DNA of 64,000 nt from Oegoconia quadripuncta (Eukaryota; Arthropoda; Insecta; Lepidoptera; Autostichidae), in assembly GCA_949316235.1 (NCBI GenBank), contig OX438755.1:19491151-19555150 (forward strand). Direction: 5' to 3'. Below the pieces are notes generated by a model. The model made no database searches. It saw nothing but the letters and a program-made list of their open reading frames with translations, and had not been told where the DNA came from. How positions within the stretch are numbered: position 1 is the stretch's first letter; each line of letters opens with the position of its first letter. The translations under genes were made by a program, and so were the position numbers. This document shows, in pieces, positions 3,970 through 61,490 of the stretch.

Positions 3970-4264
3970 ATATACTTGGACATATACAGACAGCGCCATC
4001 TAGTTCCACACTAAGCAACTAGGCTTGTGTTGTGGATACCAGATGGTTGATATACTACACAAATACATTTTTTTTTTGTAAATAAATACATATATAAATA
4101 AAAACATCCATAACTCGGGTACACATGTCCGTATTCGTCATACAAACATATACCCCTAGCGGGATTCGAACCCGCGACCTTTTGGTATAGCAGCAGAGTT
4201 TCTAACCACTACTTACTTTAGTAACTTATTAGTAATCTGTGCCACTACACCAAACAGGTCGTCG
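3970..4264 (-). mobile_element. tRNA-headed SINE, family E (with 36-bp insertion)
   Basis: On the minus strand the element begins with an A-box-like GGTGTAGTGG, has a B box at 'GGTTCGAATCCCGCTAG' and ends near 'AGATGGCGCTGT', the layout of a tRNA-derived SINE. Other copies lie at 28390 and 61228, with partial copies at 13879-14097 and 46747. This copy is interrupted at 4206-4248 by a 29-bp insert with a 7-bp duplication that the other copies lack (listed separately). Confidence 0.75.
4206..4248. mobile_element. 29-bp micro-insertion with 7-bp duplication, copy 1
   Basis: The insert occupies 4213-4241. It begins TTACTTTAGTAA and ends AGTAATCTGTG. It is bounded by CCACTAC at 4206-4212 and CCACTAC at 4242-4248. 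The family-E SINE copies at 28390 and 61228 read straight through this point with one copy of the heptamer (one base changed at 28390), so the empty site is known. The same 29 bases occur at 53601-53629 in an unrelated repeat with a different 7-bp duplication. The first 12 bases form a small TTACT/AGTAA hairpin, and the ends are not inverted copies of each other. Confidence 0.8.
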
Positions 4265-4330: not shown

Positions 4331-4490
4331 CCTATTCATAAAAAAATTACAAACGCTTTATAAGCCAGTTTTAGTCATAGTGTGTTTTGTCTATGTCGTT
4401 CCTAAGGAAATGATGTAATGAAAGAAAGTGACAAAACACACTAACTAAAAGAGGCTTATAAAGCGTTTGTAAAATTTTATGAATAACAGG
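4331..4490. mobile_element. Inverted-repeat MITE, about 160 bp
   Basis: The left arm (CCTATTCATAAAAAAATTAC, then AAACGCTTTATAAGCC) and the right arm read in reverse (CCTGTTATTCATAAAATT, then AAACGCTTTATAAGCC) are complementary over about 58 bases, including a shared GTGTGTTTTGTC. The whole unit can fold into one hairpin. It has no coding capacity. The superfamily cannot be assigned because the target duplication is unclear. Confidence 0.7.
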
Positions 4491-14184: not shown

Positions 14185-14600
14185 GAGGTGACTCCATTCC
14201 TGATTATGAACATTTCTCCACTAGGTAGCCGAATCCATTTGAAAATTGTTGGATTTCCATAATAAAGGTAGTTTTAGAATGGTTGACTTATTTAGAACTT
14301 TCATGGACATAACCAGCCCGTTCGCATAACCAAGCTATTTCACAATTAATAATGATATATTATAATATAAAATAATAATTACTAATTTTGTAATATAAAA
14401 ACCTTTTTTTTTTAATAGCAATCTCTCCAGTTTCTTGCTTGTTCTTCTCAGGGGAAAAATTGCGTTTTGAACAAGCAGTACCTTTAAAAATGTAAAGCAT
14501 TTTTGATTTGATATGGGTAGCCGAAAATTTTTGATCGAATTCGACTATGGTTCCTATTGGAAAGTTGTTCGTAATCAGGCGTGGAGTTACCAGGAATTAC
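14185..14600. mobile_element. Inverted-repeat element family F with LINE tail inside
   Basis: The left part 'GGTGACTCCATTCCTGATTA' and the right part 'GTTCGTAATCAGGCGTGGAG' are inverted copies, as in the 47.2 kb and 53.5 kb elements. Between them, 14395-14510 is a LINE tail (CAGTTTCTTGCTTGTTCTTC...), which explains the increased size. Non-coding. Confidence 0.5.
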
Positions 14601-28389: not shown

Positions 28390-28647
28390 AATATCCGTGA
28401 GCATACACACAGCGCCATTTAGTTCCACACTAAGCAACTAGGCTTGTATTATGGATACCAGATGGTTGATAAACTACACAAATACATTGTGTTTTTGTAA
28501 ATAAATACATATATGAATGAAAAACATTCATAACTCGGGTACACATGTCCGTATTCATCATACAAACATATGCCCCTTGTGGGATTCGAACCCGCGACCT
28601 CATGGTACAGCAGTCATAGTTTCTAACCACAACACCAAACAGGTCGT
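28390..28647 (-). mobile_element. SINE family E
   Basis: B box 'GGTCGCGGGTTCGAATCCCA' on the minus strand, body 'AACTCGGGTACACATGTCCG', end 'AGCGCCATTTAGTTCCAC'. Here the head reads 'TAACCACAACACCAAACAGG' with no insert, so it serves as the empty-site reference for the 29-bp insertion at 4206-4248. Confidence 0.8.
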
Positions 28648-32826: not shown

Positions 32827-32836
32827 ACTTACTTGC
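32827..32836 (-). other. Splice donor overlapping the stop codon
   Basis: On the minus strand the sequence is GCAAGTAAGT. GTAAGT matches the insect donor consensus at all six intron positions. The in-frame TAA that closes the 1291-codon frame is made of the donor's own bases, so the visible stop is probably intronic. Confidence 0.6.
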
Positions 32837-35800
32837 CAAATAACGGATGCCACAAGTGGTACGACGAGGGGTCGTGCGGATTTGGTGGCAGATGTGGCGG
32901 GACCTCTCCTAGCGGTGTGGTGCTGCCGACCTCTGGCTCCTCACGGCGTCGACCCATCGCAGCGGGCACATTGGACGCCCGCCGCATTCCCGAGGCCGCC
33001 GCCGCAGGTGTTGGCTCCAGTAGATTCTGCAGCGACTTCACAGTAATCCTCGGCCTGGGAGACTCCTGTGAACTCGCACTGCTACTCCTCTGGTAACCCT
33101 GACCCTCCGGCTGCTTCACAGACTGCAGATAGTTATTATTCGGATAGTACGGTGACGTTGGACTCTTCTGCTGTCCTGACATTGGAGATCTCTGACTTCC
33201 CACCATGTTAGGATTGAAATACGGTATTTGAAGGCCGGACAATGGCAAGTTCGGGCGGACGTTCGGATTCATTCCGGGGTACATGTTTTGTAAAAACGGA
33301 TTTTGGTTCATTCGTTGGTTGCTGTTGTAATTGTGTGTAAGAGGGCTTGTCCGTGCTGATGAGTGTGACTTGTTCTGATGATTTTTCGTGGAGTGAACAT
33401 ACGGGTTCTGAACGTCGCTGGTTTTCGACGTCATTTCCTTCATTTGAGCTTCTAATGAATTAGGTTTTGGTCGCTGTGAGGCTGTTGCGTTGGCGTGATT
33501 CATCGCTTCTTGCCACATAGCGAATTGTATCCGATTATCGTAATCTGTCGGAGGCATCGTAGGGAATCCACCTTGGCCCACGAAACGAGATGACGGGTTA
33601 AACATTTGTGATAGGTCGGGATAATTTGGTCCGTTGTAGCCTGAAGAATTTAGGGCTTTTATGAAGTCCATGTTTTGGGAACACGCAGCCATAGCTTCCA
33701 GTTGGCTGATATAAGGCAGCCACAACATCTGATTGAGAGCGGCTGAAGTCGCGGCATCGATATCGCCCGCTAGCGCGTCCATTGATGGTATAGGTTTGGG
33801 TTGACTCGTCTGATCAGTCTGCGTTGTAGGCATTTGTTCCGTACTTAACGAACTCTTCGTCCCCTCTGATGTACTTTCATTAGAATTCGATGACTCTGAC
33901 TTTTTGTTGGAATCAATTTCTAAAATATTCTCTAATTGGGCCAATGAAATGAGAAATACATCTGGATCTTCTAATAGACCAGGAACCGCAAAGGCTGCAG
34001 GTAGTCTTAGTTCCGGTCTCTGTATCAGTAATGCAGGTATTTCCCGGGCGGGAGCAGCGAGGATATGATTTAATTTGTCTTTTGGGACTAGTAATGGATC
34101 GGGGATGTTGAAATCCGGACTTGTCTTTAAAACTTGTAGTTGTTTTAAAGCCAGTCTGGCTTCCTCACACGATTTGTGGGTGCCGCTGCCTTTTTTTTTC
34201 TTTATCAATTCCGATATTAGATCGTCACTACACTTATTGAATAACTTACTAAGTTTAGCGAAATTTTCATTGGCTTCGCCTCTTATTCGTTTCTCCTGTG
34301 GCTCTCCGTATTCTTTATTCATCTTTTTCATTTCATCTGAACAACTAGTGACTGTAGGACTCGCAGACTTCCTATGTTTACCTAAACTTATCGAATCGCA
34401 GTGCTGTTTCGTGATTGTTACTTCTGACGTATACATTTTTGGGGACGGCGATGACAGTAGAGATTCTAAGAACAATGTTTGTTTACTTTTAGTTGGTGGC
34501 ACAGTGAATATTTCCGGCGACGATGGCACAGCTGGGATGCCGCTCGGTTGTGGTGATTGCATCGCATCGGATTCCCTCGAGGGCGCTCGCGGTATGTCTA
34601 TTCGTCTCGGCGAGGCATGCGGAGTAGGTAAGTTTCTATGCACACTTAAATCTTTAGGTTGTTCATCGCTCTTCTCCGATAAATTATCTTCGGTAGCGTT
34701 TGTCGTCTCAGCAACACTGGCTCTAGCTGCGCGAGTCCTGGGTTTCTTCATGCTTTTTGCGCTTAAATCAGTGGCCACTAATTCTACGCCGTTCGAGTCA
34801 TCAAGATCTGGGCTGGCAACACGTGTTTCATCCATATTATCGGACATATCCTCAATTTTAATATCTATGTCAGGACTAATCTCACTAATGGATGTTTCAC
34901 TAGGAACTGTGGGTTCCCTTTGTTCTGGTAATGACTGCTGCTGATCTTCAAATATTTTTTCCACGTAAATGCCAGTATTAGTATCAGGTACAGATTCAGT
35001 ATACATTGCGTTTGTAGCTTCGACGCCGTTTTCTATCCTCTTTTGGGCGTCCGTATCATAATCTACGTGGTTAACATTATTGATTTCCGATTGAGAGTTC
35101 AATGCTTGCAACGGACATTCCATCGAGTCCTGGGGCGCAAATACTTCATCACTCATATAAGTCTGTTCCACTGTCTGTTGATGTTCCGGGGGAGGAAGGT
35201 GCTCGCCTAATTGATGTAAATGGAGAAGGCCCTGGGCGGCGGTCATACTGCTCCGGCCCGGGGACTCCAATGACTGTTCCAGGCTGTCAATAATATCAGT
35301 GACCGGCGCACTGTCCAGCAGCATGTCGTTCTCCTCCTGAGCGCATTGGACCCGATTTTCCACGCAGCCCTTTTCAACGAGAGATTCGATCAGACTCTCA
35401 TCGTCATTCCCGGCCGACTCATTCAGGTAGTGCACTTCCTCGATCGTATCGAAGAGATTTTCATGTACAGACAGGTCGTTCTGATAGACTTCCTCCGGTT
35501 GCTCGACGGCCACGCCATGCAACTTCCGTTCGAAGAATATGCCGTTGTCCTTGGGCTCGCCGAGGTCGAAGGACATGACGTCCCGAGCGACCTCCTCCTC
35601 CGGCAGGAACGCGTACTGCTCGCCGCTAGGTTCCAGCTCGAGGAGGTCCGAGCCGCGTTGTTGGTTGAACTCGAGCTCGGCGACCGCGAGCAAGTTGTCC
35701 AGCGGCGTCGGCTCCGCGGGCGCTGGTAGGTTGGGCGGCGCCAGCTCCGTGAGCGCCGGCAAGTTGGGCGGCGTCGGCTCCGTGAGCGCCGGCAGGATGG

Positions 35801-36704
35801 GCAGCGTCGGCTCCTCGGGCGCCGGTGGGTTGGGTGACGTCGGCTCCACGGGCGCCGGTGGGTTGGGTGGCGTCGGCTCCACGGGCAACGGTGGGTTGGG
35901 TGGCGTAGGCTCCGCGGGCGTCGGTGGATTGGGCGGCGTCGGCTCCGCGGGCGCCAGCGGGCTGGGCGGCGTCGGCGGGGGCGACAGCGGCGGTGACGGC
36001 GGCGGCGTCGGCTGCGCCGAGCGCGGCAGCGCGATCGTGTGAGAAGGAATGTGGGACTCCAGGTCGGGCGCCGGCCACGTAGGCTTGCGCCTGCGCCGCT
36101 CGTTTTCCTCCAGAAGAGGTGTCTCGGACGCAGGCGGCTCGGGCGCGGCAGGCTTGGGCGTGGCCGGCTCGAGCACGGGCAGCTCGGGCACTGGCGGCTC
36201 GAGCGCGAGTTGCTCGGACGCGGTCGGTTCGAGCACGAGCGCGGGAGGCTCGGGCCAGAGCGGCTCGAGCACGGGCTCGAGTTGCTGGGACGCGAGCAGT
36301 TCGGGCACGAGCACGGATGGTTCAGAAGCGGGAGGGTCGGGCGCAGGCGCAGGCTCCGAAGGCCGGTGCAAGCGAATAGAATTGTAGATCTCGGTGCGCG
36401 GGATCACACGCCAACCGTGGAGGGTGCGCGCTATACGTATTCGATTGCGTGAGTCGTAGTCCTCGCAGCGAACCTCCTGCACGGTGCCGTCGCGCTGTCG
36501 CGCCCAAAGGAAAACGGGGCGCAGGCGCGGGCGCGGGAGGCGCGGCACTCGTGGCAGGCTGCGCGCGCGATGAGAGGGACCTGAAGACGCGGGACGGGCA
36601 GGCGCGCTGGTGGCTCGAGCATGGGCGCGGGGGCGGGACGGGCGGGCGGCGCGAGGCTCGCCGCCGCCGCCTGGCGCCCGCGGACACACTGCGGCGCGCC
36701 GCAC
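32829..36704 (-). CDS. Large exon of a Pro-rich nuclear co-regulator-like protein
   Basis: Open for up to 1291 codons, by far the longest frame. I do not recognise the protein and see no enzymatic domain. Order: a short basic segment with RDGTVQEVRC and EDYDSRNRIRIARTLHGWRV (residues 71-100); Pro/Glu-rich sequence (115-340) with 11-residue EPTPPNPP repeats; an acidic middle; DLS motifs at about 642 (ATDLS) and 681 (PKDLS), the CtBP-binding type, with a basic KKPRTRAARA between; LxxLL at about 745 (LESLL) and 1225 (LQNLL); a Leu/Pro-rich segment before 950; and an Asn/Pro/Ser-rich end. The TAA stop lies inside GCAA|GTAAGT (32827-32836), so the exon probably splices at 32833 and the protein continues. 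The N-terminus is uncertain: TTTTCCTTTGGGCGCGACAG ends at 36495 and looks like a splice acceptor, so the first 70 codons may not be coding. LxxLL plus DLS motifs suggest a transcription co-regulator (inference). Confidence 0.8.
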   Translation of the reverse strand: MRRAAVCPRAPGGGGEPRAARPSRPRAHARATSAPARPASSGPSHRARSLPRVPRLPRPRLRPVFLWARQRDGTVQEVRCEDYDSRNRIRIARTLHGWRVIPRTEIYNSIRLHRPSEPAPAPDPPASEPSVLVPELLASQQLEPVLEPLWPEPPALVLEPTASEQLALEPPVPELPVLEPATPKPAAPEPPASETPLLEENERRRRKPTWPAPDLESHIPSHTIALPRSAQPTPPPSPPLSPPPTPPSPLAPAEPTPPNPPTPAEPTPPNPPLPVEPTPPNPPAPVEPTSPNPPAPEEPTLPILPALTEPTPPNLPALTELAPPNLPAPAEPTPLDNLLAVAELEFNQQRGSDLLELEPSGEQYAFLPEEEVARDVMSFDLGEPKDNGIFFERKLHGVAVEQPEEVYQNDLSVHENLFDTIEEVHYLNESAGNDDESLIESLVEKGCVENRVQCAQEENDMLLDSAPVTDIIDSLEQSLESPGRSSMTAAQGLLHLHQLGEHLPPPEHQQTVEQTYMSDEVFAPQDSMECPLQALNSQSEINNVNHVDYDTDAQKRIENGVEATNAMYTESVPDTNTGIYVEKIFEDQQQSLPEQREPTVPSETSISEISPDIDIKIEDMSDNMDETRVASPDLDDSNGVELVATDLSAKSMKKPRTRAARASVAETTNATEDNLSEKSDEQPKDLSVHRNLPTPHASPRRIDIPRAPSRESDAMQSPQPSGIPAVPSSPEIFTVPPTKSKQTLFLESLLSSPSPKMYTSEVTITKQHCDSISLGKHRKSASPTVTSCSDEMKKMNKEYGEPQEKRIRGEANENFAKLSKLFNKCSDDLISELIKKKKGSGTHKSCEEARLALKQLQVLKTSPDFNIPDPLLVPKDKLNHILAAPAREIPALLIQRPELRLPAAFAVPGLLEDPDVFLISLAQLENILEIDSNKKSESSNSNESTSEGTKSSLSTEQMPTTQTDQTSQPKPIPSMDALAGDIDAATSAALNQMLWLPYISQLEAMAACSQNMDFIKALNSSGYNGPNYPDLSQMFNPSSRFVGQGGFPTMPPTDYDNRIQFAMWQEAMNHANATASQRPKPNSLEAQMKEMTSKTSDVQNPYVHSTKNHQNKSHSSARTSPLTHNYNSNQRMNQNPFLQNMYPGMNPNVRPNLPLSGLQIPYFNPNMVGSQRSPMSGQQKSPTSPYYPNNNYLQSVKQPEGQGYQRSSSASSQESPRPRITVKSLQNLLEPTPAAAASGMRRASNVPAAMGRRREEPEVGSTTPLGEVPPHLPPNPHDPSSYHLWHPLFGK
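35705..35970 (-). repeat. 33-bp coding minisatellite, about 8 units
   Basis: The word GGCTCC recurs at 35710, 35776, 35809, 35842, 35875, 35908 and 35941, i.e. every 33 bases (the unit at 35743 reads CAGCTCC). It encodes 11-residue units of the form EPTPPNPPxPx. The right-hand units (35820-35960) are more alike than the left-hand ones. The GC-rich repeat keeps other frames open on both strands, producing the Ala/Gly-rich overlapping frames that I do not call. Confidence 0.8.
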
Positions 36705-36930
36705 ACCGGCACTGCGACGACCGCGCGGACGCGGCCCCGAGGATCACTGCCGGCGAGCGTTGCCGCGCCGCGCTCCGCCCCGCCCCGCCCCACGATCGAT
36801 ACCCGCCCCGCCCCCCCGCGCCCGCACCCGCATGTAAACACCCCGCCCTCCGCGGGCCCCGGCTCCCAGCGCCGCTTACGGGCCCGGTGTTGCCGGCGCG
36901 AGGGAAAACTCGTAGCCCCGTAGAGCCACG
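36450..36930. promoter_or_regulatory. GC-rich, CpG-dense block upstream of the large exon
   Basis: Composition rises to well over 70% GC with many CG dinucleotides and short G/C runs (e.g. GCGGGGGCGGGACGGGCGGG), in a window otherwise around 35% GC. It lies at the 5' side of the minus-strand exon. It may be its promoter and 5' untranslated region, or an upstream GC-rich exon and intron end. No TATA box or defined initiator is evident. Confidence 0.4.
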
Positions 36931-43665: not shown

Positions 43666-44884
43666 TGTATGTTAGAATTCTAATTTCAAAATTAATTTTA
43701 TTTTAATGGAATTCTTTTTCCAAAAGTAGTCATTTGTTTATTGATTAGTGTTACATTTTCATCGCATTTCAATCTTTTTCGTCATCATGGATACGTTAAA
43801 AATTCGAGTAATTATGGAATATGAGTACCGTCGTGGCAGCAACGCGGCACAAGCGGCACGCAACATCAACGACGTTTACGGAGCTAATACTACAAACCAA
43901 CGCACCACCTGTTATTGGTTTGCTCGCTTCCGTTCTGGGATTTTCGACCTGAAAAATGAACCTCGCGGTCGTTCGAAGACTTTGGTCGACAATGACGCAT
44001 TAAAGGCGATTGTGGAAGCTGATGATACACAATCTACAGCTGAATTAGCAGCAGCTTTCGACGTTAGCGTCAAAACAATATTAGTCCATTTGCGTCAAAT
44101 TGGCAAGGTAAAAAAGCTTGACAAATGGGTGCCCCACGAACTCAATGATCGCCAGCGCAAAGTACGCGTCGAGACGTGCCTTGCACTGCTCAACAGACAC
44201 ACAAATGAAGGAATTTTGAACCGCATTGTTACCTGCGATGAAAAATGGATTCTGTTTGATAACCGCAAGCGCTCAGCAAGTTGGTTGGATCCTGGTTCAG
44301 CAACTAAACAATGCCCTAAACGAAAACTTACCCCTAGAAAAGTGATGGCCACTGTTTGGTGGTATAGCGCCGGTGTGATTCATCACAGCTTCTTACCAAA
44401 CGGGATGAGCATTACTGCAGATGTGTACTGTGAAGAACTGAACACAATGATGGAGAAGCTGGCACATCTCCAACCAGCATTGGTCAATCGCTCCTCTCCG
44501 CTGCTCCTGCACGACAACGCGCGACCTCATACTGCACAGCAGACGGTCTCCAAGTTGCAAGAATGGGGGTTGGAAGCTCTCCGTCATCCGCCCTATACTC
44601 ACCAGACCTTGCGCCTACAGACTACTACTTTTTCCAGAATTTGGATAACTTCTTGGCAGGAAAAAAATTCAATACCCGAGAGGCAGTACAAAATGCGTTT
44701 GAAGAATTTGTTGCCTCCCGTCCAGCTGATTTCTTTAAGGAGGGCATCAATAAACTGCCACTGCGTTGGCAAAGATGCATTGATTGCATGGGTGATTACT
44801 TCGATTAATACAAATAAAAAAACATGAAAAAAATTCGTTTAAATTATTTCATACAGAACCGCAATTTCATAGGTAAAGACCTAA
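43666..44884 (+). mobile_element. Mariner element, 5' end missing
   Basis: A mariner transposase frame with 3' end 'GCAATTTCATAGGTAAAGAC' plus CTAA and TA. The matching 5' inverted end (expected TTAGGTCTTTACC...) is not found. Instead the LINE tail ends at about 43665 and the element's 5' leader starts. The kept 3' terminus is clearly related to both ends of the family-B MITEs of this window. Without the left end the copy should be immobile. Confidence 0.75.
43787..44808 (+). pseudogene. Mariner transposase with one frameshift
   Basis: The upstream frame opens at 43748, but the family's usual start is probably the Met at 43787 (MDTLKIRVIMEYEYRRGSNA). Counting from 43748: HTH region 18-70, linker with the basic GRSK, second HTH about 95-115, WVPHEL at 127-132. 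First catalytic Asp in CDEKW (164), second in LLHDNARPH (256). At about 44594-44597 an apparent 2-base TA duplication shifts the frame. The third Asp (SPDLAPTD) is read in the other frame and closes at GDYFD. The spacing of 34 between the last two Asp residues is the DD34D signature of mariner. Apart from this shift the coding sequence is well kept, so inactivation seems recent. Confidence 0.85.
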
Positions 44885-47166: not shown

Positions 47167-48190
47167 ACAGGGTGAACTTTAATTCGTGTACTTCCTGTTC
47201 ACTGGTGACTTCACTCCTGATTACGAATGACTTTCAACGATTGGATCAAAAATTGTTCGATTAATCATACCAAGCAAACCATTCGGAAATCATCTTTTGT
47301 ATGGAAGTCCAACAATTTACGTCTGAATTCGGCGATGGTTCTTAGTGGAAAGTTGTTTATAATTAGGAGTGGAGTCATCACTAAATAAATTGTTGGACTT
47401 CGGTTTCAGAATGGTTTACTTTGTATGGGTAATGGAAAATTTTTTGATCGTATTCGACTATGGTTCCATGGAGAAAGTTATTCGTAATCAGCAATATTAA
47501 TACAGTCACTGTGTAGATGTGGCTAACGTAAATAATTAGGAATCAAATTACGATAAAGTTGCTAATTAAGTGCTTCCATACTTACTAAAATAACTGACTT
47601 GCCTTGACGTGAGATCTCATAACTTTTTTCGGTGGAAGTATTGCGGTGTGAAACTTGTCATTTTGTACATTTTATGTTTTTGATGGGATAGGAATTACAC
47701 GAATTCAAATGATAGATAGATAGATCGTTTATTTGTATCTCCAGTCACACACATACCATAAGTTCCAAAGCAATTGGATAAACATATTTTATAACAATTC
47801 ATAAAAGTAACATCAGGATACACTAGAGTATGTGTGTGCTACAGCCGTACATATGGGTCATAGCTCAGTGTGTATAAGTGCCCAGAGAGCAAAACACTGA
47901 TTTTCAGCTATTACCCACTTCAAATTCACCTTATATTACTGTGACATTTTGAATTCCCTTAATTCTTTTGATTATTGTCGTTGTTATCGAATACCTACTT
48001 ACGTACTCACGAGTAGTGTGTACCGTATACGTAAATAATTGTCGAATATGAAATACTATTAAAACTCTTTAATCGAATACTAATCTATCTGAGAGCTATG
48101 TAGGAAATATGGTTCCTTGAGGACAGTTGTTCGTAATCCGGAGTGGCATCACCAGTTAATGGGAATTACACGCATTCACATTCACCCTGT
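47167..48190. mobile_element. Inverted-terminal element, family F, about 1 kb
   Basis: The left end ACAGGGTGAACTTTAATTCG with 'CTGGTGACTTCACTCCTGAT' is inverted at the right end ('ATCCGGAGTGGCATCACCAG' ... 'CACATTCACCCTGT'). TIRs are about 70 bp. Interior copies of the GATTACGAA/TTCGTAATC arms at 47216-47500 suggest a nested or composite structure. A minus-strand LINE tail at 47712-47930 is inserted within. No transposase frame was found, so it is non-autonomous. Confidence 0.6.
47712..47930 (-). mobile_element. LINE 3' tail with (TAGA)n end, minus strand
   Basis: 'GATAGATAGATAGATCGTTT' and 'ATTTGTATCTCCAGTCACAC' to 'AACACTGATTTTCAGCTATT' are the reverse of 50535-50792. It sits inside the family-F element. 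Confidence 0.55.
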
Positions 48191-53490: not shown

Positions 53491-53700
53491 GTGATTCCAC
53501 TCCTGATTACGAACAACTATCCACTGGGAACCATAACCAATATAAGCCGAAATTGGTATACTTTGTAATCGAAAATTTTTTGTTCCAATTGGGCTATGGG
53601 TTACTTTAGTAACTTATTAGTAATCTGTGCTATGGGTCCTAGGGAAAAGTTGTTCGTAAGCATGAGTGGAGTCATCAGGAAACAGGAACTAACATAATAG
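53491..53700. mobile_element. Family-F inverted-repeat element
   Basis: Left arm 'ATTCCACTCCTGATTACGAA', right arm 'GTTGTTCGTAAGCATGAGTG' with GAGTCATCAGG. Related copies at 14.2 kb and 47.2 kb give the expected spacing of the central 'CTATGG.TCCTA' region, which here is interrupted by the 29-bp insert at 53594-53636. Confidence 0.55.
53594..53636. mobile_element. 29-bp micro-insertion with 7-bp duplication, copy 2
   Basis: The insert is at 53601-53629, identical to 4213-4241, flanked by CTATGGG at 53594-53600 and 53630-53636. The empty site is visible in family-F relatives ('GACTATGGTTCCTATTGG' at 14546 and 'GACTATGGTTCCATGG' at 47456). Because a C precedes both duplications, the unit can also be read as 30 bp with 6-bp duplications. 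The length is the same at both loci either way. Confidence 0.8.
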
Positions 53701-55397: not shown

Positions 55398-55507
55398 CTA
55401 CTTTACTATACCGAACATTTGTACAAAGAAGTTCGACTCTTCATTCACAATCCGGATAACCAAGGCATGGAACGCCCTTCCGGCGTGTCTTACAACCTTG
55501 CATGGCA
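55398..55507 (+). pseudogene. LINE protein C-terminus fragment
   Basis: The sequence reads FDSSFTIRITKAWNALPACL, like SSFLMRTAKEWNALP at 52.1 kb. It is cut off on the right where a different LINE begins. Confidence 0.5.
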
Positions 55508-56651
55508 TGGCAGGCATGGGAAGATTCGCAGGATGCGATAGGTATTTTCTGTGATCTATCCAAGGCCTTTGACTGCGTTCATCATGATGGTCTGGTCAGG
55601 AAATTACGCTACTATGGCATTATAGGCCGTGCCCTCAACCTTTTGGAATCGTACTTGTGTAATCGAGTTCAAAGGGTTGATGTCAATGGTAAGAGGTCGT
55701 CAGGGTCTCCAGTTTGCATAGGTGTTCCACAGGGCTCAATTCTCGGGCCATTCTTATTTCTTGTATATATTAATGATCTACCCAATTGTATAAACGGAAA
55801 CCATGAGATAACAATATTTGCTGATGACACCTCCTTGCTCTTCAAAGTTAGGAGACGACAGAAAACTCTTGACGACGTGAATAGTGCTATCTCTAAGGTG
55901 GTTGAATGGTTTACGTCAAATAACCTACTTCTTAATGAAAAAAAAACCAAATGCATAAAATTTTCACTACCTAATGTCAAACAGGTAGCTAGTACTATTT
56001 CAATAAAAAACGAGGAGTTGGAGCTTGTGGACACTACTCTATTTCTAGGCATTATGTTAGATAAAGGACTACAATGGGGTTCACATATCGAAAGGTTGTC
56101 GAAACGTCTCAGTTCTGCAGTGTTCGCTATTAAAAAAATCCGCTATTTAACCGACGTGGACACCGCGAGGCTGGTATACTTCAGCTATTTCCATAGCATA
56201 ATGGCTTATGGCATTCTGTTATGGGGAAATGCCGCGGACATAAATTGTATTTTTGTTCTGCAGAAGCGAGCGGTTCGTGCGATCTACAAGTTAGGCTCCC
56301 GAGTATCTCTGAGGAATAAATTTCAAGAATATCAATATATTAACTTTGGCATCGCAATATATTTACGAAAACTTAATGTACGTAAGAAAGAATCTGTATT
56401 TGTTTAGGAAAAATTGTGAAATACACAATGTTAATACAAGATATAAAAATAAACTTGCTGTCCATAGCAGTCGCTTACACAAAGTCACTAAGTCATTCAA
56501 GGGACAATGTATACGCTTTTACAATAAGGTTCCGGTAGACATTCAAAATTTGCCTTTAAATAAATTTAAAACAACCATTAAACGAAAACTATGTGCCAAA
56601 GGCTATTATAAAATTTCTGACTATCTGGATGATAAGAATGCGTGGACATGA
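55508..56651 (+). pseudogene. Reverse transcriptase of the LINE, frameshifted
   Basis: It enters the RT domain at IGIFCDLSKAFDCVHHDGLV (motif with the first catalytic Asp), then GVPQGSILGPFLFLVYINDL, then TIFADDTSLL with the catalytic DD pair, then NNLLLNEKKTKC and FLGIMLD, and the W..H thumb region. The RT frame closes at 56407. The natural C-terminus continues in the overlapping frame from 56346 (ENLMYVRKNLYLFRKN ... YYKISDYLDDKNAW), so one indel lies near 56345-56350. These motifs are of the Jockey/CR1 type. The N-terminal endonuclease is absent. It would have reverse-transcribed its own RNA (known for the family) but is dead here. Confidence 0.85.
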
Positions 56652-57730: not shown

Positions 57731-59027
57731 CTAAGTATCGGGAATTTGTCAATAAAACAAAAAAATACAAATTATTCATCTAAATTTATTTTATCGCCTT
57801 CAAAGTAGGCCCCATCGCTTGCAATACAACATCTCCACCGCTTCACCCAGTCTTCCATACATTTTTCATAGGCTATTTGCGGTATGGCCTTTAGCTCATT
57901 CAGCGAATTTTCTTTTATGGCTTCTATCGACTCAAAACGTTTTCCTCGAAGTGGTAATTTTAACTTGGGAAATAAAAAAAAGTCAGACGGAGCCATATCA
58001 GGTGAATACGGTGCTTGGTCGAGAACTTTTGTTGAATTTTTCGCTAAAAACTCTTTCACTATAATGGCTGTGTGTGATGGTGCATTATCATGGTGCAGCA
58101 TCCATGAGTTGTGTTGCCACAAATCTGGACGTTTTCGGCGGATACTCTCACGCAAACGCTTCATGACGCCTAAATAATATTCTTTATTCACTGTTTCTCC
58201 CTCTGGAAGGAATTCGGAGTGAACCACACCACGGTAGTCAAAAAAAACTGTCAGCATCACCTTGATTTTGGAGCGACTTTGCCGCGGTTTTTTGGGTTTC
58301 GGCTCGTTTTCGAGACGCCATTCTGAAGACTGTTGGCTTGTTTGCATGTCGTACTCATAAACCCATGTCTCGTCGCCAGTTATTATACGTTTCATAAAGG
58401 TCGGATCCGTAGAAGCTCGGGAAACCATGTCTTCAGCGACATGCTTTCGCTGCGCTTTTTGAACAAAATTGAGCTCTTTTGGAACTAGTCGAGCGGCGAC
58501 GCGTTTCATGCCTAAAATGTCAATGAGAATGTTGTGGACGGACTTAAAAGATATGTTCACCTCACTAGCCAACTCTCTCAGACTCATACGTCGATTTTCG
58601 AGCACTAGCTTCTTGATTCTGTCGATGTTTTCTTTGGTCGTAGCGGTTGAAGGTCTACCAGAACGAGGCAAGTCTACTACTACTTCTCGGCCTTCTTTAA
58701 AAGCCTTATACCATTCATAAGCCCTTGTTTTCGATATACACGATTCGCCGTAGGTATTTCGCAACATTTTTAGTGATTCACCACATGAAATATCATTTGA
58801 AACACAAAATTTAAGGCACACTCTTTGTTCAACAATATTTTCCATTGTAAAAATCGCCGAGGACTCAAAACTATGACCAACAAAAAGTGTAGTTTAAAAC
58901 AAATTAAATTACAGATCCCGCTCAAATTTTGCGCGCTAAATCAGTACAGTGCTACCAACATGCAGTAAAAAAATTAGAACGACCTCTTTTACGCGGGTCT
59001 TTTTATTGACATATTCCCGATACTTTT
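57731..59027 (-). mobile_element. Mariner element, apparently complete
   Basis: The left end CTAAGTATCGGGAATTTGTC and the right end read inverted (AAAAGTATCGGGAATATGTC, then AATAAAA) match at 24 of 28 positions. TA stands on both flanks (57729-57730 and 59028-59029). Total 1297 bp, the standard size of mariners. It holds one uninterrupted transposase frame on the minus strand. Everything expected for an autonomous element is present. Confidence 0.9.
57772..58845 (-). CDS. Mariner transposase, 357 aa, intact frame
   Basis: It would bind the element's inverted ends and perform cut-and-paste transposition into TA in the nucleus (known for mariners). Visible order: first HTH about residues 20-53 (ESLKMLRNTYGESCISKTRA, then YEWYKAFKEGR), a GRPST minor-groove linker (64-68), second HTH about 88-107 (LRELASEVNISFKSVHNIL), and VPKEL (121-125) in place of the usual WVPHEL. 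Catalytic Asp residues are D158 (GDETWVYEY), D253 (HHDNAPSHT) and D288 (YSPDMAPSD), with 34 residues between the last two (DD34D). Length 357 is slightly above the usual 340-350. The start at 58845 is the first Met and fits MENIVEQ.. beginnings of the family. The 5' leader lies between it and the right terminus. Confidence 0.9.
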   Translation of the reverse strand: MENIVEQRVCLKFCVSNDISCGESLKMLRNTYGESCISKTRAYEWYKAFKEGREVVVDLPRSGRPSTATTKENIDRIKKLVLENRRMSLRELASEVNISFKSVHNILIDILGMKRVAARLVPKELNFVQKAQRKHVAEDMVSRASTDPTFMKRIITGDETWVYEYDMQTSQQSSEWRLENEPKPKKPRQSRSKIKVMLTVFFDYRGVVHSEFLPEGETVNKEYYLGVMKRLRESIRRKRPDLWQHNSWMLHHDNAPSHTAIIVKEFLAKNSTKVLDQAPYSPDMAPSDFFLFPKLKLPLRGKRFESIEAIKENSLNELKAIPQIAYEKCMEDWVKRWRCCIASDGAYFEGDKINLDE

Positions 59028-61227: not shown

Positions 61228-61490
61228 AATAATAAATATCCTTAGACATACCTACACACGGCGCCATCTAGTTCCACAGTAAGCAACTATAGGCTTGTGT
61301 TGTGGATGGTCGATATACTACATAAATACATTTTTTTTTGTAAATAAATACTTATTACAAATGAAAACATCCATAACTCGGGTACACATGTCCGTATTCA
61401 TCACACAAACATATGCCCCTATCGGGATTCGAACCCGCAACCTTTTGGTATAGTGGTCAGAGTTGCTAACCACTACACCAAACGGTTGCG
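61228..61490 (-). mobile_element. SINE family E
   Basis: Minus strand: 'GTTTGGTGTAGTGGTTAGCA' (A box), 'GGTTGCGGGTTCGAATCCCG' (B box), 'CATATGTTTGTGTGATGAAT' and the end 'AGATGGCGCCGTGTG'. It begins just after the right end of the compound element. The intact 'GCTAACCACTACACC' here is a second empty-site reference for the 29-bp insertion. Confidence 0.8.

What the first reader, a model, noticed from the sequence alone, without database searches (positions are those of the whole stretch)
4206..4248. Identical 29-bp insert with its own 7-bp duplication at two unrelated loci
The sequence directly shows the same 29 bases (from TTACTTTAGTAA to AGTAATCTGTG) at 4213-4241 and 53601-53629. The first is flanked by CCACTAC on both sides, the second by CTATGGG on both sides. 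Both lie inside repeats for which this window also has uninterrupted relatives, so the empty sites are visible. Two independent targets, a constant duplication length and an identical insert are the marks of transposition or of an integrase-like reaction. No transposable element I know is so short, and the ends are not inverted repeats. It could be a minimal substrate of a trans-acting enzyme, the residue left by imprecise excision of a larger element with 6-7-bp target duplications, or a very short reverse-transcribed RNA.
Basis: seen in the sequence. Interest (0 to 1): 0.88.

Follow-up and report, generated by a model that had tools for sequence, protein, structure and literature searches.

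The report
Thousand-copy 29-base mobile DNA insert
A sequence only 29 bases long occurs more than a thousand times in this genome, and in most of the copies read it sits between two clean 7-base repeats of its target, which makes it a mobile piece of DNA far shorter than usual and raises the question of what enzyme moves it.

Summary
The 29-mer lies at 4213-4241 and 53601-53629 between 7-bp duplications, and uninterrupted paralogues show the empty sites. In the window's own 622.6-Mb assembly the pattern (six free inner bases) has 1066 matches, its reversed control 0. Of 91 distinct copies read, 81 have a perfect 7-bp duplication and 3 have one mismatch. Two further patterns give 152 and 102 matches with the same right end and other left ends; of 40 read, 21 are 22-mers with a perfect duplication. 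Duplications follow a two-fold symmetric rule (pyrimidine at 2, purine at 6), as a transposase-like enzyme with a 7-bp stagger would leave. The right end matches that of an older, longer repeat family whose right flanks follow the same rule. So the insert looks like the outermost 22-29 bp of a DNA transposon. Whether the stub is moved as a unit, left by excision or retro-copied is not settled. No young long parent was recognised; the transposase search did not complete.

The parts
4206..4212 (+). left 7-bp target-site duplication CCACTAC, inside a minus-strand repeat that looks like a tRNA-derived SINE (by eye)
4213..4241 (+). 29-bp insert, copy 1
   Evidence: uninterrupted paralogues; 1066 matches
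4242..4248 (+). right 7-bp target-site duplication CCACTAC
53594..53600 (+). left 7-bp target-site duplication CTATGGG
53601..53629 (+). 29-bp insert, copy 2
   Evidence: uninterrupted paralogues
53630..53636 (+). right 7-bp target-site duplication CTATGGG
28432..28647 (+). uninterrupted paralogue of locus 1
61281..61483 (+). uninterrupted paralogue of locus 1
14522..14596 (+). uninterrupted paralogue of locus 2
47429..47490 (+). uninterrupted paralogue of locus 2

Best explanation
The insert belongs to a family of ultra-short mobile DNA units, mostly 29 or 22 bp, that consist only of the outermost right end of a DNA transposon. SHOWN: 1,320 genome matches to three non-overlapping patterns with one constant right end (...AGTAATCTGTG); in the copies read, lengths concentrated at 29 and 22 bp; a perfect 7-bp duplication in most; a target rule symmetric under reverse complement (pyrimidine at 2, purine at 6, usually G/C at 1 and 7); both orientations at one and the same repeat site; a longer, older repeat family that ends in nearly the same sequence and whose right flanks follow the same rule. 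INFERRED: a DDE-type transposase acting in trans recognises the right end (read inward CACAGATTACT...), joins its 3' end to a target cut with a 7-bp stagger, and the short unit's left end is joined to the other side more or less passively, gap filling giving the duplication. The preferred lengths, with different bases at the left edge of the 22-mers, suggest a cut at a fixed distance from the right end. The transposase was not identified.
For: 1066 matches against 0 for the reversed pattern. 91 distinct copies read (89 of the 100 listed places, all but the last eleven of contig C1, plus the 2 in the window): 81 perfect 7-bp duplications, 3 with one mismatch. The other 7: in L050 the duplication ACCATGG encloses a later LINE fragment, L023 has one extra base, L021 and L058 are partial, L062 has 2 mismatches, L002 and L054 have none. 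Target rule: of 83 inserts of 29 bp with a perfect duplication (point variants included) 83 have a pyrimidine at 2 and 82 a purine at 6; 23 of 23 for both in 22-mers; 31 of 32 for each in all other lengths. Variant classes: 152 matches, 20 read, 16 with a perfect duplication round a short insert; 102 matches, 20 read, 13 perfect within 30 bp. One site in the SINE-like repeat is hit in 12 clear cases of 91, 5 on the repeat's strand and 7 on the other (a 13th, L009, is a weak match), so these are repeated insertions, not one insertion carried along. In the 9 copies nearest the long family's tail the right flank has a pyrimidine at 2 in 9 and a purine at 6 in 8 (the cut at 9 was made by eye on the score).
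Against: No transposase was identified (search not answered) and no young long element with both ends was recognised. Ten of the 131 copies read have no clear duplication nearby (L002, L054, L178, L186, L189, L193-L196, L208). A 22-29-bp duplex is too short to loop between two active sites of an ordinary transpososome (general knowledge). The left end differs between classes yet is the same within a class, which a passively joined end does not by itself explain. Within single sites the two halves are often unlike (C..A 22 and T..G 21 against T..A 13 and C..G 6 of 62), which a simple palindromic preference does not explain.
Confidence: 0.45

Rival explanations
1. Excision footprints. A transposon with 7-bp duplications once sat at each site and left by a P-like reaction that cuts one strand far inside the element (17 nt in P). 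One 3' overhang was trimmed back to the duplication and the other was kept and filled in, leaving 22 or 29 nt of one end between two intact duplications.
For: P transposase leaves 17-nt 3' extensions (PMC7776569, passages), so end remnants of about this size are conceivable. Fixed length 22 with different inner bases (CA 12, AG 8, TT 2) and single products 24 = CA+22, 23 = C+22, 20 look like repair products of one cut. Galileo, of the P superfamily, has 7-bp duplications with consensus GTANTAC (PMC4168063, passages), and GTA is a common half-site here.
Against: 1,320 matches and no young long element recognised among 131 copies read (ten of these remain unclear) would need almost complete excision. 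One repair product would dominate: 1066 matches against at most 254. Two long-family copies show no CACAGAT in about 5.4 kb to the left of the right end; of 15 loci scanned for CACAGATTACTAA with up to 2 mismatches only L141 (1466 bp to the left) and L133 (to the right) had one.
Confidence: 0.3
2. Retro-insertion: the right end is the 3' end of an RNA (a LINE or SINE tail, or a 22-29-nt small RNA) copied at a nick, and the left end is a 5' truncation.
For: Constant right end, several left ends, and an older longer family that shares the right end and appears cut at different points on the left.
Against: Fixed 7-bp duplication and equal, symmetric target preference at both ends are unlike target-primed reverse transcription as I know it. 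No poly-A or tandem-repeat tail. Left ends are dominated by a few classes. The 29-mer as RNA folds no better than shuffles.
Confidence: 0.15
3. Assembly or library artefact (an adapter-like sequence placed in the genome).
For: The same short sequence at many places.
Against: A different, rule-obeying 7-bp duplication at each site; uninterrupted paralogues; base variants; other length classes; a copy later split by a LINE fragment.
Confidence: 0.02

Closest known systems
P superfamily of DNA transposons (P, 1360, Galileo)
   Same: 7-bp (Galileo) or 8-bp (P) duplications and a GTA half-site in Galileo's target (passages); element end reading CA inward, as in the zebrafish P-like element (passages); P's long staggered cut could give end stubs of about this size
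   Different: no terminal inverted repeats in the unit, 22-29 bp in all, no transposase identified, single target sites often GTANNGG or CCNNTAC rather than GTANTAC
Dada DNA transposons
   Same: 6-7-bp duplications, no terminal inverted repeats but short sub-terminal ones, some families in the tRNA A box (passages)
   Different: Dada families are inserted in specific small-RNA genes and encode a transposase; here 12 of 91 copies clearly lie in the tRNA-like repeat site and the rest elsewhere
MITEs
   Same: non-autonomous, high copy number, fixed duplication length
   Different: MITEs have paired terminal inverted repeats and are usually some hundred bp (recalled); this is 22-29 bp with one conserved end
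Transposon excision footprints
   Same: short remnant of an end between two duplications
   Different: 1,320 matches that are mostly one form, and no young parent recognised at the places read

Membership tests
P superfamily transposon | 7-8-bp target-site duplication | tested here: met
   81 of 91 perfect 7-bp
P superfamily transposon | terminal inverted repeats | tested here: not met
   ends of the 29-mer and 22-mers differ; no CACAGAT within about 5.4 kb left of two long copies
P superfamily transposon | palindromic target motif GTANTAC | tested here: inconclusive
   symmetric as a set, with GTA half-sites, but single sites are often GTANNGG or CCNNTAC
P superfamily transposon | P-type transposase in the genome | not tested
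   PF12017 search did not complete
Dada | 6-7-bp duplication and no terminal inverted repeat | tested here: met
Dada | strict targeting of multicopy small-RNA genes | tested here: not met
   12 of 91 clearly in the SINE-like site, the rest elsewhere
Dada | Dada transposase | not tested
   no query made
MITE | paired terminal inverted repeats | tested here: not met
LINE/SINE retro-insertion | duplication of varying length | tested here: not met
   7 bp in most copies read
LINE/SINE retro-insertion | constant 3' end with 5' truncation | tested here: inconclusive
   right end constant, left end in a few classes; longer old relatives vary on the left
Excision footprint | intact element elsewhere with the same ends and duplication rule | tested here: inconclusive
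   older long family shares the right end and right-flank rule; its left end and left duplication were not found

The most novel reading that the evidence does not exclude
A self-contained mobile unit of 22-29 bp with a single recognised end, moved in trans as a short (perhaps single-stranded) DNA by a two-fold symmetric enzyme with a 7-bp stagger: an 'end-only' transposon class moved by a one-ended reaction, smaller than the transposons known to me.
Probability: 0.35. Interest if true: 0.93.

Novelty: new variant of a known kind. Interest (0 to 1): 0.82.

Why it matters
If such short pieces are moved as units, the lower size limit of transposable elements falls to two or three turns of the DNA helix, and repeat finders built for longer elements would pass over them. 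They would add more than a thousand small insertions with 7-bp duplications to this genome alone. If they are footprints, they are a large natural record of how the gaps left by a transposon with a long staggered cut are repaired. Either way the sites give a ready map of an enzyme's target rule.

Tried and rejected
Parent with the same left end: pattern TTACTTTAGTAACV gave 83 places against 112 for the reversed control. 30 loci were read; apart from diverged copies of the insert (L070, L074), the recurrent matches were interior parts of repeats with conserved sequence on the left too, not element ends.

Longer element in L050: first taken for a parent; one search shows a LINE-like fragment with a poly-A tail inside a 29-mer copy. 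Apparent 261-bp element with inverted ends in L042: rejected, because each end has its own duplication (GCTATGT, 7 bp, perfect; CTATAG, 6 bp), i.e. separate short inserts.

Reading frames to the left of two long-family copies: none above 160 codons, not searched further. Left duplication of the long copies: none found. Rfam on the window at gathering scores: no family. 29-mer in viral contigs: 0. Papers holding parts of the 29-mer: one, an unrelated Haemophilus paper in the listing. Papers on shortest transposons: none relevant in the listing; other listings. Window-only scans for other short inserts (one search failed on its parameters) gave nothing decisive. Hairpin structure: the insert folds no better than shuffles.

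Full report
The window and its two inserts. The 29-mer TTACTTTAGTAACTTATTAGTAATCTGTG is present exactly at 4213-4241 and 53601-53629, on the same strand, with CCACTAC and CTATGGG repeated on either side. No third copy with up to three mismatches exists in the window, and 100 shuffles give none. Joining the flanks without the insert finds uninterrupted, diverged paralogues for both: for locus 1 a repeat that looks by eye like a tRNA-derived SINE (Rfam gave no family at gathering scores), for locus 2 a partly palindromic repeat. So both are true insertions with 7-bp duplications.

Abundance. The window is part of an unnamed assembly of 622,649,726 bases in 45 contigs. The pattern with six free inner bases gives 553 + 513 = 1066 matches; read backwards it gives 0. 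The output lists the first 100 places. I read 89 of them (all but the last eleven on contig C1) plus the two in the window: 91 distinct copies. Eighty-one have a perfect 7-bp duplication and three have one mismatch. Of the other seven, L050 has its outer duplication but was later split by a LINE-like fragment, L023 has one extra base, L021 and L058 are partial, L062 has two mismatches, and L002 and L054 have none. Among the 100 listed, 5 differ in the six free positions, about 0.8% per site, so the family is young; other positions were fixed by the pattern and say nothing about age.

Target rule. Number the duplication 1 to 7 in the insert's orientation. Among 83 inserts of 29 bp with a perfect duplication (point variants included), 83 have a pyrimidine at 2, 82 a purine at 6, and 73 each a G or C at 1 and at 7. 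Information content is alike at both ends. Such two-fold symmetry is what a dimeric strand-transfer or cutting enzyme with a 7-bp stagger leaves. Within single sites, unlike halves (C..A 22, T..G 21) outnumber like ones (T..A 13, C..G 6) among 62 sites; I cannot explain that. The same site in the SINE-like repeat is hit in 12 clear cases of 91, 5 in one orientation and 7 in the other; a 13th, L009, matches only weakly.

Other lengths. HTAACTTATTAGTAATCTGTG gives 152 matches and VAGTAACTTATTAGTAATCTGTG 102, with controls of 0; by construction the two do not overlap with each other or with the exact 29-mer. Of 20 read from the first set (18 in listing order, 2 picked for a preceding C) 16 have a perfect duplication round a short insert, one has a single mismatch (L175), and L178, L186 and L189 have none. 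Of 20 read from the second set (8 with a preceding A, 6 C, 6 G) 13 are perfect within 30 bp, two have one mismatch (L197, L209), and L193-L196 and L208 have none. Twenty-one of the 40 are 22-mers with a perfect duplication. Over everything held, perfect 22-mers number 23: CA 12, AG 8, TT 2 and one CA form of the older sequence type. Two 18-mers and single cases of 20, 24, 27 and 30, plus two of 23, also occur (the 14 in that output is an artefact of L050). All 23 perfect 22-mers have pyrimidine 2 and purine 6. The main lengths, 29 and 22, differ by 7, the duplication length.

A longer relative. BTTAGTAATCTGTG gives 236 places (control 13). I read 50 of them (46 after removing near-identical flanks). 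Many belong to a repeat that carries the motif inside it. Others end a family of at least about 450 bp, mostly 82-87% alike, whose last bases are ...GTTACGAAGTAACTATTTAGTAATCTGTG followed by unrelated flanks. In the nine nearest to that tail, the right flank has a pyrimidine at 2 in nine and a purine at 6 in eight. Short inserts of this older sequence type with 7-bp duplications exist too (L137 perfect, L135 with one mismatch). I infer that the short inserts are the terminal 22-29 bp of this kind of element. Its left end and left duplication were not found; about 5.4 kb to the left of two copies hold no CACAGAT, and the 4-kb stretches further left hold no reading frame above 160 codons.

Mechanism. 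Three models fit parts of the data. First, the end stub is moved in trans by a DDE-type transposase that needs only the right end; this fits the constant right end, the symmetric 7-bp rule and the lack of recognised parents. Second, footprints: P transposase cuts 17 nt inside the element (PMC7776569, passages), so stubs of about this length could be left; this fits the fixed 22 with varied inner bases and the minor products, but needs almost total excision. Third, retro-insertion, against which the fixed duplication and the symmetric target speak. I put 0.45, 0.30 and 0.15 on them. Ten of the 131 copies read have no clear duplication nearby, and a parent among them cannot be excluded.

Comparison. 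Galileo, of the P superfamily, makes 7-bp duplications with consensus GTANTAC (PMC4168063, passages); GTA half-sites are common here, but the unit has no terminal inverted repeats. Dada makes 6-7-bp duplications, lacks terminal inverted repeats and in some families sits in the tRNA A box (PMC3706591, passages), but is inserted in specific small-RNA genes. Zebrafish P-like elements have 8-bp duplications and ends starting CA (PMC10983969, passages). A 62-bp RTE copy with a 7-bp duplication in Helicoverpa zea shows that short retro-insertions also occur in moths (PMC1852546, passages). I found no report of mobile units this short; the searches were made, of an open-licence library, seen as listings.

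Limits. The genome search answered five times; the 3-mismatch count, the long-family search and the transposase search did not complete. No sister species or reads were available.

Noticed in passing
L009 (G000:C1:18711800-18712800): two 29-mers head to head, sharing one 7-bp duplication (GTAGTGG three times): repeated insertion at one target
   Followed up: partly
L030 (G000:C1:14071328-14072156): two copies in tandem, 27 and 29 bp, separated and flanked by GTCTTGT
   Followed up: partly
L042 (G000:C1:21942974-21943802): three short inserts of the family within about 330 bp, in two orientations, with different duplications
   Followed up: partly
L123, L127-L129, L131, L134, L136, L139, L140, L143 and others: a repeat family with TTTAGTAATCTGTG followed by a conserved GCTAATGGTGCTGG; it may carry an old fixed insert of the same kind
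   Followed up: no
window 4333-4485: palindromic (foldback) repeat just beside locus 1, seen as a self-inverted match
   Followed up: no
window 43745-44827 (+) and 57772-58893 (-): long reading frames that look like mariner-type transposases (by eye, not searched)
   Followed up: no
window 55460-56407 (+): reading frame that looks like a LINE reverse transcriptase fragment (by eye, not searched)
   Followed up: no
window 32829-36743 (-): 1304-codon open frame with a 33-bp tandem repeat at 35702-35976; perhaps a host gene exon, not searched
   Followed up: no
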